DNA from: Vulcanimicrobiota bacterium
Lineage (GTDB): Bacteria; Vulcanimicrobiota; JAJTBE01
Direction of reading: 5' to 3'
Assembly (NCBI GenBank): GCA_021107945.1
Contig: JAIORV010000129.1
Span: 1 to 52,014 of the forward strand
DNA length: 52,014 bases
A program made the translations under genes and the position numbers. Shown here piece by piece: positions 43,481 to 48,133 of the stretch. How positions within the stretch are numbered: position 1 is the stretch's first letter; the number at the start of each line of letters is the position of its first letter. The notes beneath the pieces were generated by a model. That model was given only the letters and a program-made list of their open reading frames with translations, searched no databases and was not told where the DNA came from.

Positions 43481-46400
43481 TTATTCCACTTCGAGCTTCA
43501 CAGGCTCTGCAACGGCTTTTACATCGGGATTGTAATACAGATATGCGTTGCTGTCGGGAGTTTTTATCTTCATCGGGAATCTTGCCCGCAGGCGGTATTT
43601 GAATTTGAGCGTCTCGCCCTCCTTCACATCATCGGTATAAACCAGGATCTGTCTTGATGTCGTTGTGTATTTTGCAAACACCTTGTTTACATACTGATCC
43701 AGATCTGATCTTACAAGGTCAAATCCGGGAGGAATTCCCAGGTCGATCATCACATTGTTCATGACTTTTGTTGTGTTATTCCTGACAAATACAGTGGCGG
43801 TTATGGTCTCGTCCTCCTGGAGCTTCGTGCGGTCATACTTTATGGTTATCGTGAGGGGCTCCTTCGCACGATCCACCTTGACCCAGGGCATATAATATTT
43901 GCCGACAACCTGGTAATAACAGATGCCCTTGCCGGTTATGGATATCTTCACATCATTCTTGCCCTTTTTCGTTACCTTGCCGAAGTCCGCCTGGTTATAG
44001 ACATCGTAGTTGTTGGAATTGATTCTGAACTCCTCGGTCTGTTTTCCGTTGACCGTTATTTTCACCTTTGCGTCTATCTTCTCCGTTGCCCTTTCCTGCG
44101 CCATAATCAGGGCTTTCATTGCAAGCATGGTGCTCTGGGTGGAATACCATGTGCCGTGGGGATCCTTTGCTTTTATAAGGTAATTCACGGCTTTTGACGC
44201 TATGCCGGCATCGCCGGGCGATTTCAATAAGGCCATTGTCGCAAGCGCAGTGCATTCGATATTGGCAACATTACCATAAGAGCGCATTACAGTGGGCTTT
44301 TTCGTTCCCCAATATGCCATGTCATTATCTATGGTCGCCTTATCTTTGAGCCTCTGTAAAACCTTCTGTGTCATCGGGTTGCCGGGTTGAATTTTAGTCA
44401 GGATATTTCCCAAAAGGGCAAGTAAATACGGGTCCTCAATCTGTCCGGCTTGTCCCTTCAGGTAATCTATCGCCTTGTTCAGGCCTCCGCCCTTGTAGCC
44501 TGATTCTGTAAGCGCCCAGGCAATATATGCGGTGGACCTCATATTTCCCCAGGAGCCGTCGGGTTTTTGCTGACTCATCAGCCAATTCTGGGAGCGGGAG
44601 GTCACATTTTCGTCAACATCCCAAACCTTCGACATGTCACGGAATTCCATGATTCCCATTGCGGTCAGGTTGACATTTGCGGGCGATTTTCCATACATAG
44701 AGAATCCGCCGCCCTGAACCTCGAACGAGAGAAGTCTCTGGTAGCCGGTGTTTATGTAACTCTCCGCCTTCATTTGTAGTTCAGGGGTGATTTTCTTTGT
44801 CTTTTTCATATATTCAAGGACAAGCACATTTGGGTAAGTGGCGGCGGTTGTCTGCTCGAAACATCCGTGAGGCATACGGAATATCTTGTCAAGTCCCTCC
44901 ACAACCTGGGTGAGTATTACCGGGTAGAGTCTGACGAGGATTTTTGAAGCTCCCGGTATTGATTTATCGGGAATTTCCATATAGACAGTCTCTTCCTGCT
45001 CCACACTTCCCGATTTACTCTTTATGAACATCCTGCCGTTGGGGAGGACATCGATTCGTCTTCTTATGGCATCGCTGAGCTTGCTGCCCTTTCCGTGGAC
45101 AGTGAAAGTATAATTGCCGATTTGTGTTACCTTTATCCTGAAATGAACCGCTTTCACATCGCCGGGATTCATTGTTATGGTTTTTATGGGCTTATCCATC
45201 AGCTTGAACCATTTCTCCGATGTATCAACGGTAAGCTTGACTGTCTGTTTTTCTTTCAGGTAGTTATAGACGGCGATGGGGACATCCACCTCGTCATTCT
45301 GCGTCAACGATACGGGGAAATCTATGTCAATAAAGAAGTCCTGGAATACCTTTATCGCCGTTGTGATGTTCCCCATCTGACCTTTCAGCGAGTTGGCAAA
45401 AGCTGAGAGCCTCCAGGATGTGATGGAGTCCGCCATTTTAACTTCGATCTCGGCGTTCCCTTTATCATCTGTTATCACCTGCGGATTCGTATAGAGCGTT
45501 TCAGGGAAATACTCACGGATTCTGACAGGCGCACCGGCTTTCTTCTTGGGCGATTCACCCTTTCTTTCTTTCATTGCATCTACTTTTAGTCTTTTTGTGA
45601 CCTTAAACTTCGCATAATCCATACTATCGGGTGCTGCCCCTGATATCGTTCTCATTTCTGATCTCAATAATGCGGGCCTCCCCTGCGGTCTTAATTTTCC
45701 AAACGCCTGGCCTATCCGGGTGAAATCCATATCGTCTTTTGTATCCTTCTTGCCGTCGGGCCCCATTGTGAAGATTTGCGGAGGCATGTTCTTTCCTTTT
45801 GGCTCTTTAAGGTAGAATTTGTTGCCCCAGGGATCGAGCATTCCTTCTTTCTTAATGAATTTCTCTTTCACAAGAACATTGAAATTATATGAAGACGGAT
45901 AGAATCTGTGCTTTCTGTAGTGCTCATAAAGAGCATTCTGAATCTTCTGCATCTTCTGAACGCATTCTTTCAGATTTTCAGTTTGACTGTCCAGGTTAAT
46001 CGTGAATTTCTCAGGTGACGGAAGCTTCGCCAGAACAATCTCCTCGATTATGTTCTTATCTCTTGATGCCTTATCATCAGCAAGGACTATATCTCTTGCC
46101 GTCATTCCTCTTATCTCGTATTTGGGATCCATAAATTGCTTCTGCAACAGGAAGTACGCTTTCTCCAGTCCGGGTCTCATCTGTCCCATCGCAAAAACGG
46201 CCTCGTCCACGATATCGACCCCCAGAGCGGCGGCGAGGGGTTTTCCATTCTTACCCTTCACATTCAGCTTTATCTTCGCATTCTCTCCGGGTTTGTATTG
46301 TTTTTTATCGAGTGTAGTCGTTATCGCCAGATCGTCCGCGTTTTTTATGAATATGTTTTTGGTGTCACGGATAAAATTATTGTTGTCTGTGAGTCTGTAG

Positions 46401-48133
46401 GCGTGTGCGGTTACCATTCCCGCCATATCGGGAGTCGCCTCGATTGAGAAGGCTTGTACCGAGCCTGATAACATAACAGCGTGGGTTGATATGATCTGGT
46501 TGTTTTTTATGAAATCGATATAGCATGATCCCTGTCCCTGCGTGCTTAATATGTCAAACTTTAACGATTCTCCCACCTTATAGACGGCCTTCTCCGCTCT
46601 CAGGATAATATTATCTTTCTTGTATGTGGTGGGCAGGTATATCGTCGTCTTTAATCTCTGACCGTCGGGCGTGTATGCGTCAATTCTTACGGGAATTCCC
46701 AACGGCCGAGAGGGGGCCCTTCCGGGTCTCGGTATTCCAACTCTTACTTTCCTTGAACTCGGAGGTTCTTCAGACAGCGTCTTTTTTTGGAGGTTCATAA
46801 CCCGTCTCGGGATAATAGAATGCTGCAAAGAGGGCTTTATCTTAAATATGCCGACCCCGGCCTTGTCAGTTACTACATTATACTTCTCGTTCGAAATCTC
46901 CAGGTTGACTGTCGCCGCTACAGGCGATCCGTCAGGATAACTTGCCAGAACATATACCCGGTTTTCTATCCCGGGCTTTAATTTACCCGATTCGGGGAAA
47001 AGCTCGACTTTGAGAGGATTGTTTGATATCGGAATTGACCTGTAAGTCCTCTCCTTGTGTCCCGCGGTGTCCCTTACGGCAACCTCCATCAATACGCTTG
47101 CCTGTCCCTTTTCAAGTGGAGTGCCGGTAATCGTGTCGGGAATCTTCATCTCGAACTTAAAATCTCCGTTCTTGTCTGTAACTCCTTTCGCTGTTGCAAC
47201 GGTTCTCGTCGCCACATCGAAAATATTAAGCCTGGCGTTAACCTTTCCGCCTGATACGGGCTTCCCGAAGAAGTAGTCGGCCTGAATCTCTCCCTTCAAT
47301 GTTTCGCCGGGTGAGTAAAATTTGCGATCCTTCTTGAATACAACTTTGAACTTTGGAAGTACATATTTCTTCACGACAACAGCCCTTGATGCCGTCTCTT
47401 TGTCTATAATAGCTTTTACCTTGTATGTGCCCATGTTGACCTCGTCGGCAAGCTCGAAAATTCCGCTTGCAACGCCAAATCTCGAGGTCTTCCCGGCATT
47501 CTTGTAAACCTTGTTTCCTTTTGAATCAAGTATCTCAATCGTTACATCCTTTTCCGATAATGGCTTCAGATCCGGAATGTTCAGCGCAAGAACCCGGATA
47601 TTTATTTTCTGCCCCGGCTGATACATGGGCTTGTCAACAGTGATGTGTATTTTGAAGCTCTTCTTTATATTGATATTCGTGTTGATTGATATATGCTTGT
47701 CTTTTGTACCGGTTACAACCGCCAATTTACAGGTTCCCTCTTTATCTGCCGGTATCCTGAAACTTGCATCCAGGGAGCCGTTCTTGCCGGTTTTACCTGA
47801 GAAAACAATCTTCCTTTTTGCCTGCTTTTCCTCTGAAAGAAAAATACTCACCGGCACGTTTTCGATAGGATTCTGTGTCTTGGGATTATATGTGATAATC
47901 CTGAGTCCACCGACACTGCCCGCCAGAAGATTTGAATTACCCAGAATCTTAACCTCGTAATATGGAAGTTTTCCCGTTGTCGTCTGAGTAAGATCAACAA
48001 TAGGGGAGGAAACAGCGGGAATCTTTGGCCGGTCATCCTCCACCGACGGTTCTTTCTTCTGAGTGCAGTTCATAAAGAAAATAAGCATCAGCGCAATTGA
48101 AAGTAAAATCATTATAGTCCTGGTTCTTTTCAT
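43481..48133 (-). CDS. Alpha-2-macroglobulin family lipoprotein with GspG-like insertion
   Basis: This 1550-residue protein is a bacterial alpha-2-macroglobulin, a protease trap acting at the envelope. A signal segment ends at Cys23 (FFMNC, a degenerate lipobox). Macroglobulin beta domains follow (MYQPGQKINIRVLALNI near 165; KPGENAKIKLNVKGKNGKP). Residues about 718-803 resemble the C-terminal part of a type II secretion major pseudopilin: YPSSYNFNVLVKEKF, LDPWGNKFYLKEP and FTMGPDGKKDTKDDM. The A2M block ETLYTNPQVITDDKGNAEI then SITSWRLSAFA follows, and the thioester motif GCFEQT has Cys1091 and Gln1094. The last 450 residues are the thioester and receptor-type domains. AGAGGTG precedes the ATG. 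No penicillin-binding protein 1C gene is adjacent in the window. Confidence 0.92.
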   Translation of the reverse strand: MKRTRTIMILLSIALMLIFFMNCTQKKEPSVEDDRPKIPAVSSPIVDLTQTTTGKLPYYEVKILGNSNLLAGSVGGLRIITYNPKTQNPIENVPVSIFLSEEKQAKRKIVFSGKTGKNGSLDASFRIPADKEGTCKLAVVTGTKDKHISINTNINIKKSFKIHITVDKPMYQPGQKINIRVLALNIPDLKPLSEKDVTIEILDSKGNKVYKNAGKTSRFGVASGIFELADEVNMGTYKVKAIIDKETASRAVVVKKYVLPKFKVVFKKDRKFYSPGETLKGEIQADYFFGKPVSGGKVNARLNIFDVATRTVATAKGVTDKNGDFKFEMKIPDTITGTPLEKGQASVLMEVAVRDTAGHKERTYRSIPISNNPLKVELFPESGKLKPGIENRVYVLASYPDGSPVAATVNLEISNEKYNVVTDKAGVGIFKIKPSLQHSIIPRRVMNLQKKTLSEEPPSSRKVRVGIPRPGRAPSRPLGIPVRIDAYTPDGQRLKTTIYLPTTYKKDNIILRAEKAVYKVGESLKFDILSTQGQGSCYIDFIKNNQIISTHAVMLSGSVQAFSIEATPDMAGMVTAHAYRLTDNNNFIRDTKNIFIKNADDLAITTTLDKKQYKPGENAKIKLNVKGKNGKPLAAALGVDIVDEAVFAMGQMRPGLEKAYFLLQKQFMDPKYEIRGMTARDIVLADDKASRDKNIIEEIVLAKLPSPEKFTINLDSQTENLKECVQKMQKIQNALYEHYRKHRFYPSSYNFNVLVKEKFIKKEGMLDPWGNKFYLKEPKGKNMPPQIFTMGPDGKKDTKDDMDFTRIGQAFGKLRPQGRPALLRSEMRTISGAAPDSMDYAKFKVTKRLKVDAMKERKGESPKKKAGAPVRIREYFPETLYTNPQVITDDKGNAEIEVKMADSITSWRLSAFANSLKGQMGNITTAIKVFQDFFIDIDFPVSLTQNDEVDVPIAVYNYLKEKQTVKLTVDTSEKWFKLMDKPIKTITMNPGDVKAVHFRIKVTQIGNYTFTVHGKGSKLSDAIRRRIDVLPNGRMFIKSKSGSVEQEETVYMEIPDKSIPGASKILVRLYPVILTQVVEGLDKIFRMPHGCFEQTTAATYPNVLVLEYMKKTKKITPELQMKAESYINTGYQRLLSFEVQGGGFSMYGKSPANVNLTAMGIMEFRDMSKVWDVDENVTSRSQNWLMSQQKPDGSWGNMRSTAYIAWALTESGYKGGGLNKAIDYLKGQAGQIEDPYLLALLGNILTKIQPGNPMTQKVLQRLKDKATIDNDMAYWGTKKPTVMRSYGNVANIECTALATMALLKSPGDAGIASKAVNYLIKAKDPHGTWYSTQSTMLAMKALIMAQERATEKIDAKVKITVNGKQTEEFRINSNNYDVYNQADFGKVTKKGKNDVKISITGKGICYYQVVGKYYMPWVKVDRAKEPLTITIKYDRTKLQEDETITATVFVRNNTTKVMNNVMIDLGIPPGFDLVRSDLDQYVNKVFAKYTTTSRQILVYTDDVKEGETLKFKYRLRARFPMKIKTPDSNAYLYYNPDVKAVAEPVKLEVE

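What the first reader, a model, noticed from the sequence alone, without database searches (positions are those of the whole stretch)
45700..46010. A GspG-like pseudopilin domain inside an alpha-2-macroglobulin
Seen: residues about 718-803 of the A2M protein carry YPSSYNFNVLVKEKF, then LDPWGNKFYLKEP, then FTMGPDGKKDTKDDM. Known: DPWGNPY and SLGADGxxGGEGxDxD are hallmarks of the soluble part of major type II secretion pseudopilins. Inference: a pseudopilin C-terminal domain has been inserted into the bait or mid region of a protease trap, with the calcium-loop-like end partly kept (DGKKDTKDD). This could give a calcium-stabilised bait, or a link to a secretion system. I know of no described case.
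Basis: partly seen in the sequence, partly recalled or inferred. Interest (0 to 1): 0.7.

Follow-up and report, generated by a model that had tools for sequence, protein, structure and literature searches.

The report
Pseudopilin-fold domain in bacterial protease trap
A bacterial relative of the blood protease trap alpha-2-macroglobulin carries, just ahead of its bait, a small calcium-site domain borrowed from a secretion-machine subunit; it is conserved across many bacterial phyla, sits where human complement proteins carry their anaphylatoxin, and I found no published description of it.

Summary
ORF 43481-48133(-), 1550 aa, is one intact thioester-type alpha-2-macroglobulin (PHGCFEQ). Residues 714-802 (45728-45994) form a pseudopilin head domain: Pfam T2SSG above its cut-off, a profile search of the PDB returning GspG/PulG first, and an AlphaFold model whose 14 best PDB fold matches are all major pseudopilins or a pseudopilus model of one. 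All three calcium-binding side chains of the solved pseudopilin (D117/T122/D125) are present (D793/T798/D801) and conserved in 64-66 of 66 relatives.

It is neither unique nor an assembly error: 67 of 75 classifiable relatives, from more than ten bacterial phyla, have it at the same place, including a paralogue in the same genome. The site is the bait/anaphylatoxin position of A2M, C3 and C5. Some relatives carry a multi-helix membrane domain there instead.

The bait is more likely the disordered, hypervariable linker after the domain (803-869). The domain lacks the pilin N-terminal helix and prepilin signal, so it should not enter a pseudopilus, and no secretion gene lies beside it.

Best reading (inferred): a calcium-stabilised spacer that holds the bait in a covalent protease trap. 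A new variant of a known kind.

The parts
43481..48133 (-). Thioester-type alpha-2-macroglobulin, 1550 aa, one uninterrupted ORF
   Evidence: Pfam MG2, MG3, MG4, A2M_BRD, A2M, TED_complement and A2M_recep all above their cut-offs
48068..48133 (-). N-terminal hydrophobic export signal (residues 1-22, followed by Cys23; atypical lipobox FMNC)
   Evidence: Read from the sequence; most relatives also start with a hydrophobic export segment. Lipidation not tested
46187..46603 (-). A2M_BRD region (residues 511-649): MG5 and the first part of MG6
   Evidence: PF07703; AF2 model with high confidence
46100..46210 (-). Conserved anchor VDEAVFAM..PGLEKAYFLLQKQFMDPKYEI (residues 642-678), last MG6 strand and following helix before the insert
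   Evidence: mean top-residue frequency 0.67; aligned to complement C5 and CD109
45995..46099 (-). Linker 1 (residues 679-713); one short predicted helix, otherwise low confidence
   Evidence: its start is shared with the membrane-type relative L048
45728..45994 (-). Pseudopilin-head domain, T2SSG type (residues 714-802)
   Evidence: Pfam; PDB profile; AF2 pLDDT mostly above 90; Foldseek top hits 3g20, 5o2y, 3gn9, 4lw9
45824..45835 (-). DPWG motif (residues 767-770)
   Evidence: D767 invariant in 66 of 66 relatives, W in 54
45731..45766 (-). Calcium loop MGPDGKKDTKDD (residues 790-801); ligand equivalents D793, T798, D801
   Evidence: Ligands of 3G20 from PMC3396595; D793 66/66, T/S798 64/66, D801 65/66
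45527..45727 (-). Linker 2 (residues 803-869), predicted disordered, the probable bait; 17 Lys/Arg in the window copy
   Evidence: AF2 pLDDT below 50 for residues 819-865; most variable part of the region
45497..45526 (-). VRIREYFPET (residues 870-879), invariant FPET strand that ends the bait in A2M, C3 and C5
   Evidence: FPET invariant; one search aligned to human A2M VRKYFPET
45230..45484 (-). PF00207 A2M domain (residues 884-968)
44108..44911 (-). Thioester domain (residues 1075-1342)
   Evidence: PF07678, E 7e-45
44852..44872 (-). Thioester motif PHGCFEQ (residues 1088-1094)
   Evidence: GCFEQ invariant in alignment A6
43508..43759 (-). C-terminal A2M_recep domain (residues 1459-1542)
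   Evidence: PF07677

Best explanation
The gene encodes an exported, covalent, probably monomeric protease trap of the alpha-2-macroglobulin/thioester-protein kind, whose bait site has been enlarged by a calcium-binding pseudopilin-head domain. Shown by sequence and fold prediction: the domain lies between the last MG6 strand and the FPET strand, it keeps the calcium loop, it lacks the pilin membrane helix, and it is followed by a long disordered, fast-evolving linker. Inferred: that linker is the bait. A protease cuts it, the trap changes shape, and the thioester Cys1091-Gln1094 couples to the protease. Inferred: the pseudopilin head is a compact calcium-stabilised spacer that stays attached to the N-terminal half, holds the bait across the opening of the trap, and with the bait forms a rapidly changing cassette. 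It would work like an A2M trap with a structured domain at the anaphylatoxin position, not like a pseudopilin.
For: All A2M domains and the thioester are intact. The domain is T2SSG by Pfam, by PDB profile search and by fold. Its position is fixed by alignment to CD109, A2M, C3 and C5 on both sides. Calcium ligands D793, T798 and D801 match those of 3G20 (D117, T122, D125; PMC3396595) and are conserved in 66, 64 (T or S) and 65 of 66 sequences. A peptide with this loop consensus binds calcium with a KD of 33-79 uM (PMC3396595). Linker 2 is predicted disordered and is the least conserved segment; it diverges more than the domain in 27 of 28 pairs. Bait disorder and untethering is the known trigger in E. 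coli A2M (PMC4498604). The domain has been kept across many phyla.
Against: There is no experiment. The placement of the domain relative to the MG domains is low-confidence in AF2 (pTM 0.56). That linker 2 rather than linker 1 or a loop of the head is cut is inferred. Calcium binding is inferred from ligands only. Relatives with membrane helices at the same site show that a pseudopilin head is not needed for the trap as such, so a pure spacer role does not explain why this fold was chosen. Own-phylum sampling is thin (7 of 149 genomes).
Confidence: 0.6

Rival explanations
1. Released-fragment model: proteases cut both linker 1 and linker 2, the pseudopilin head is freed like C3a or C5a, and it acts as a signal or binds calcium elsewhere.
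For: Exact positional match to the anaphylatoxin domain of C3 and C5; both flanking linkers are low-confidence in the model.
Against: Part of linker 1 is a predicted helix and its N-terminal flank is strongly conserved. No conserved processing site was seen by eye. The head diverges fast between close relatives, unlike a ligand for a fixed receptor. Free-living bacteria have no known receptor of this kind.
Confidence: 0.12
2. Docking model: the head binds the type II secretion pseudopilus or its partners, and places the trap where secreted proteases pass.
For: True GspG-like genes (E about 1e-10 or better) occur in most host genomes tested, while the three Chloroflexi genomes with membrane-type inserts have none.
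Against: The N-terminal pilin helix and methylation motif that build the pseudopilus are absent (window residues before 714; compare the real GspG with N_methyl). No T2SS gene is a neighbour. G001, G003, G153, G347, G348 and G355 carry the domain without a strong GspG, although some are incomplete. Presence of T2SS is confounded with having an outer membrane.
Confidence: 0.1
3. Calcium switch: the head folds only above a calcium threshold, so the trap is armed outside the cell and is cut or inactive when calcium is low.
For: All calcium side-chain ligands conserved; measured affinity of such loops is tens of micromolar, well above intracellular calcium (PMC3396595).
Against: Pseudopilin loops are mostly described as structural; nothing here shows switching.
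Confidence: 0.15
4. Exchangeable bait cassette: head and linker are swapped between strains by recombination to change protease specificity, with the conserved calcium core as a scaffold.
For: In two of six close pairs tested, both synonymous and non-synonymous divergence are raised in head plus linker (L065/L088 pS 0.56-0.73 against a mean of 0.34; L098/L112 0.55-0.73 against a mean of 0.40).
Against: The other four pairs show no clear synonymous excess; L065/L088 has another peak in the N-terminal half; small numbers, simple estimator.
Confidence: 0.2
5. Artefact: chance motifs or two genes joined by an assembly error.
For: None found.
Against: Single ORF; same-genome paralogue on another contig and dozens of independent genomes with the same arrangement.
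Confidence: 0.01

Closest known systems
Metazoan thioester proteins (CD109, A2M, A2ML1, TEP1)
   Same: Best solved relatives of the whole protein: CD109 E 4e-62, 213 bits, then A2ML1, A2M, TEP1; MG domains, TED and A2M_recep domain, FPET strand after the bait
   Different: Has a pseudopilin head at the bait site; bacterial
Complement C3/C5
   Same: A folded domain inserted at the same site between the MG6 strand and the FPET strand (position of the anaphylatoxin itself from general knowledge)
   Different: The inserted domain is a pseudopilin head, not the helical disulfide-rich anaphylatoxin; nothing shows that it is released
E. coli/Salmonella-type bacterial A2M (YfhM, ECAM)
   Same: Thioester trap of the cell envelope, disordered bait (PMC4498604)
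   Different: Not among the 60 best solved matches; A2Ms with PYGCVEQ or PYGCTEQ in the same genomes (L051-L055) lack the domain and form a separate branch
GspG/PulG major pseudopilin (PF08334 T2SSG)
   Same: Head fold, DPWG and the G-x-D-G-x(5)-D-D calcium loop
   Different: No prepilin leader, no N-terminal pilin helix; embedded in a 1550-aa protein

Membership tests
Thioester alpha-2-macroglobulin family | MG domains, A2M_BRD, thioester domain and C-terminal A2M_recep domain | tested here: met
   all above Pfam cut-offs
Thioester alpha-2-macroglobulin family | CxEQ thioester motif | tested here: met
   PHGCFEQ residues 1088-1094; invariant GCFEQ in A6
Thioester alpha-2-macroglobulin family | Protease-triggered covalent trapping | not testable with these tools
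   Needs biochemistry
E. coli-type bacterial A2M | Two extra N-terminal domains, pbpC neighbour, close sequence relation | tested here: not met
   N-terminus too short for two extra domains (MG2 begins at residue 161); neighbours are topA and a GIDA-family gene; own branch in the tree
T2SSG domain (PF08334) | Score above gathering cut-off and pseudopilin head fold | tested here: met
   26.9 against 21 bits; Foldseek 3g20 probability 1.00, TM 0.69
T2SSG domain (PF08334) | Calcium ligands D117, T122, D125 of 3G20 | tested here: met
   D793, T798, D801
GspG major pseudopilin (functional) | Prepilin leader, N-methylation motif and N-terminal pilin helix | tested here: not met
   No N_methyl hit in the protein; the genome's real GspG has it
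GspG major pseudopilin (functional) | Equivalog model TIGR01710 | tested here: not met
   17.3-22.8 bits against cut-off 88.85
Anaphylatoxin domain | Small helical domain with three disulfides | tested here: not met
   A single Cys in the domain and a different fold

The most novel reading that the evidence does not exclude
A widespread bacterial sister group of the metazoan A2M/complement proteins has its own solution at the anaphylatoxin/bait site: a recombinationally exchanged cassette made of a calcium-pinned pseudopilin scaffold plus a hypervariable bait, which is interchangeable in evolution with a membrane-spanning bundle that anchors the trap by its bait. This would make bacterial traps fast-evolving anti-protease immune molecules and would bear on where the complement architecture came from.
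Probability: 0.2. Interest if true: 0.85.

Novelty: new variant of a known kind. Interest (0 to 1): 0.62.

Why it matters
It defines a bacterial A2M subfamily, spread over many phyla, that resembles CD109/A2M/TEP more than the E. coli A2M that stands for bacteria in the literature, and that has a structured domain exactly where complement proteins carry their anaphylatoxin. It gives a clear, testable prediction (calcium-dependent trapping, bait at residues 803-869) and shows the pseudopilin head used as a general exported calcium module. It also bears on the open question of how bait regions diversify and where metazoan thioester proteins came from.

Tried and rejected
Assembly error or frameshift: rejected (intact ORF, paralogue, relatives). 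Chance motif match: rejected. The bait being the pseudopilin domain itself: not excluded, but linker 2 fits better. Membrane insert as a substitute for a missing N-terminal anchor: not supported, since both types start with a hydrophobic export segment. Homology of linker 2 between domain-type and membrane-type proteins: not significant, so an early impression of a shared bait style was dropped. First dN/dS run was wrong because the tool reads an initial GTG as M and the segment was mislocated; repeated correctly. Neighbour genes: no conserved partner, no pbpC, no T2SS gene. PADLOC: no hit. The genome search needs a genome handle as centre (searches failed; solved). Literature: no paper in the held library joins macroglobulin with pseudopilin or T2SSG; most subscription papers are not in that library.

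Full report
What is there. The - strand ORF 43481-48133 encodes 1550 aa without a stop or frameshift. Pfam finds MG2, MG3, MG4, A2M_BRD, A2M, TED_complement and A2M_recep above cut-off, and T2SSG at residues 722-801 with 26.9 bits against a cut-off of 21. The piece alone gives E 1.4e-7. The GspG equivalog model scores far below its cut-off. The thioester motif PHGCFEQ is at residues 1088-1094.

Is it really a pseudopilin head? A profile of the eight closest A2M-borne domains (A2) searched against all PDB sequences returns major pseudopilins first: 1t92/5o2y PulG E 4e-8, 29jd, 5wda, 3g20. A profile of 66 inserts gives the same family first, apart from one cytochrome construct that matches elsewhere. 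AlphaFold on residues 695-808 with 67 sequences gives mean pLDDT 86, with most of the core above 90. The 14 best Foldseek matches in the PDB are pseudopilin structures, 13 chains of GspG-type proteins and one pseudopilus model (3g20 E 1e-4, TM 0.69).

Calcium site. In 3G20 calcium is held by the side chains of D117, T122 and D125 (PMC3396595, read), and the motif G-x-D-G-x-x-[GN]-[TN]-x-D-D binds calcium as a peptide. The window reads GPDGKKDTKDD, with D793, T798 and D801 at the three ligand places. Over 66 relatives these are D 66, T or S 64, and D 65 (the last one E); D800 and D767 of DPWG are also 66 of 66. So the loop is kept whole, against fast change elsewhere in the domain.

How widespread. 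The same genome has a paralogue on contig C45 with the domain. The nearest genomes of the same phylum have it too. A scan of 84,980 species genomes with a full-length alignment, using patterns outside the domain, found 378 relatives and kept 80. Of 75 inserts that could be delimited, 67 have the domain (64 by pattern, 3 by eye: L075, L090, L120) and 8 have strongly hydrophobic segments instead (sequences). Hosts are named Armatimonadota, Hydrogenedentota, Planctomycetota, Cloacimonadota, Poribacteria, TA06, Acidobacteriota, Myxococcota, Pseudomonadota, Spirochaetota, Calescibacteriota and others. Of 66 inserts, 24 match T2SSG in Pfam at E 0.01, so ordinary annotation misses most. A second sample of 189 genomes in a Myxococcota phylum found 43 with related A2Ms: most high scorers have the domain, several carry membrane helices, and some distant ones have neither.

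Where it sits. A profile of residues 500-985 aligns on one side to C5 and CD109 up to the strand and helix VDEAVF..PGLEKVYFLLE, and on the other side to human A2M, CD109, C3, C4 and C5 from VRxYFPET onward. This gap is where A2M has its bait and, from general knowledge, where C3, C4 and C5 have the anaphylatoxin. AlphaFold shows MG5 and MG6, a low-confidence linker, the head (pLDDT above 90), a disordered stretch at residues 819-865 (pLDDT below 50), and the next MG domain. In E. coli A2M the disordered bait, once cut, is what triggers the trap (PMC4498604). I therefore take residues 803-869 as the bait.

Relation to other A2Ms. The window protein matches CD109 (213 bits), A2ML1, A2M and TEP1 best among solved structures, and E. 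coli-type A2Ms are not in the best 60. A2Ms with PYGCVEQ or PYGCTEQ in the same genomes lack the domain and form a separate branch. In the wider tree the domain-type proteins form one nested group. Membrane-type proteins branch deepest and reappear in Chloroflexota and in G017 (quick method, several long branches). So I do not claim which insert came first.

Evolution of the cassette. Among 28 pairs with a well-aligned domain, mean identity is 0.73 in the C-terminal half, 0.84 in the MG6 helix, 0.61 in the head and 0.41 in linker 2. In two of six close pairs, synonymous divergence is also raised over head plus linker. This suggests, but does not prove, that the cassette is exchanged by recombination.

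What it is not. It is not a pseudopilin in function: there is no prepilin leader, methylation motif or N-terminal helix, while the genome has a normal GspG with N_methyl next to a PDZ protein and a PilX_N protein. Neighbours of the A2M gene are topA, a GIDA family gene and a methyltransferase. Neighbours in other genomes are unrelated to each other. Several genomes with the domain show no strong GspG. It is not an anaphylatoxin: the fold differs and there is a single cysteine.

Verdict. Real, well supported as an architecture, with no description found in the held literature. Mechanism: an A2M-like covalent trap with a calcium-stabilised spacer before the bait, at moderate confidence. Calcium binding, bait cleavage and trapping remain untested.

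Noticed in passing
L126, L130-L133, L136, L137, L139 (Chloroflexota, e.g. Longilinea arvoryzae L131); L159, L160, L163, L164, L167, L169; G017 L048 and L050: Related A2Ms carry a multi-helix membrane domain at exactly the bait site instead of the pseudopilin head, so the trap would be anchored through its bait region. The junction in L048 lies inside sequence homologous to the start of the head's long helix.
   Followed up: partly
L048, insert near the end of the membrane segment: The last hydrophobic helix reads LLVAFAAVAAFMVPNFLRARGGGG, which resembles a type IV pilin N-terminal helix.
   Followed up: no
L007:427-1782 and L008:850-2163 (own genome); G002:C54 (1086 aa) and G151 (860 and 520 aa): Other large proteins with pseudopilin-like pieces detached from GspG; L008 has two CQSNMKNIGTALEMYSTDHSGHYPKNLKQL-like repeats, the first after PNFLQARG.
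   Followed up: partly
L135 (Deltaproteobacteria Meg22_46_Bin_104): Two adjacent A2M genes whose inserts are about 460 aa long and seem to hold an extra domain before the pseudopilin motif.
   Followed up: no
G000 contigs C32, C45, C31, C26, C28: The window's genome encodes at least five A2M-like proteins, two with the pseudopilin domain.
   Followed up: partly
G003:C322 / L044: A copy with the domain in this genome is interrupted by a TGA stop and looks like a pseudogene or an assembly fault.
   Followed up: no
L065/L088 around residue 400: A second peak of synonymous and non-synonymous divergence in the N-terminal half, possibly another exchanged segment.
   Followed up: no
window 43481-48133: Bacterial protein with CD109/A2M/TEP1 as best solved relatives rather than E. 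coli A2M, which bears on the origin of metazoan thioester proteins.
   Followed up: partly
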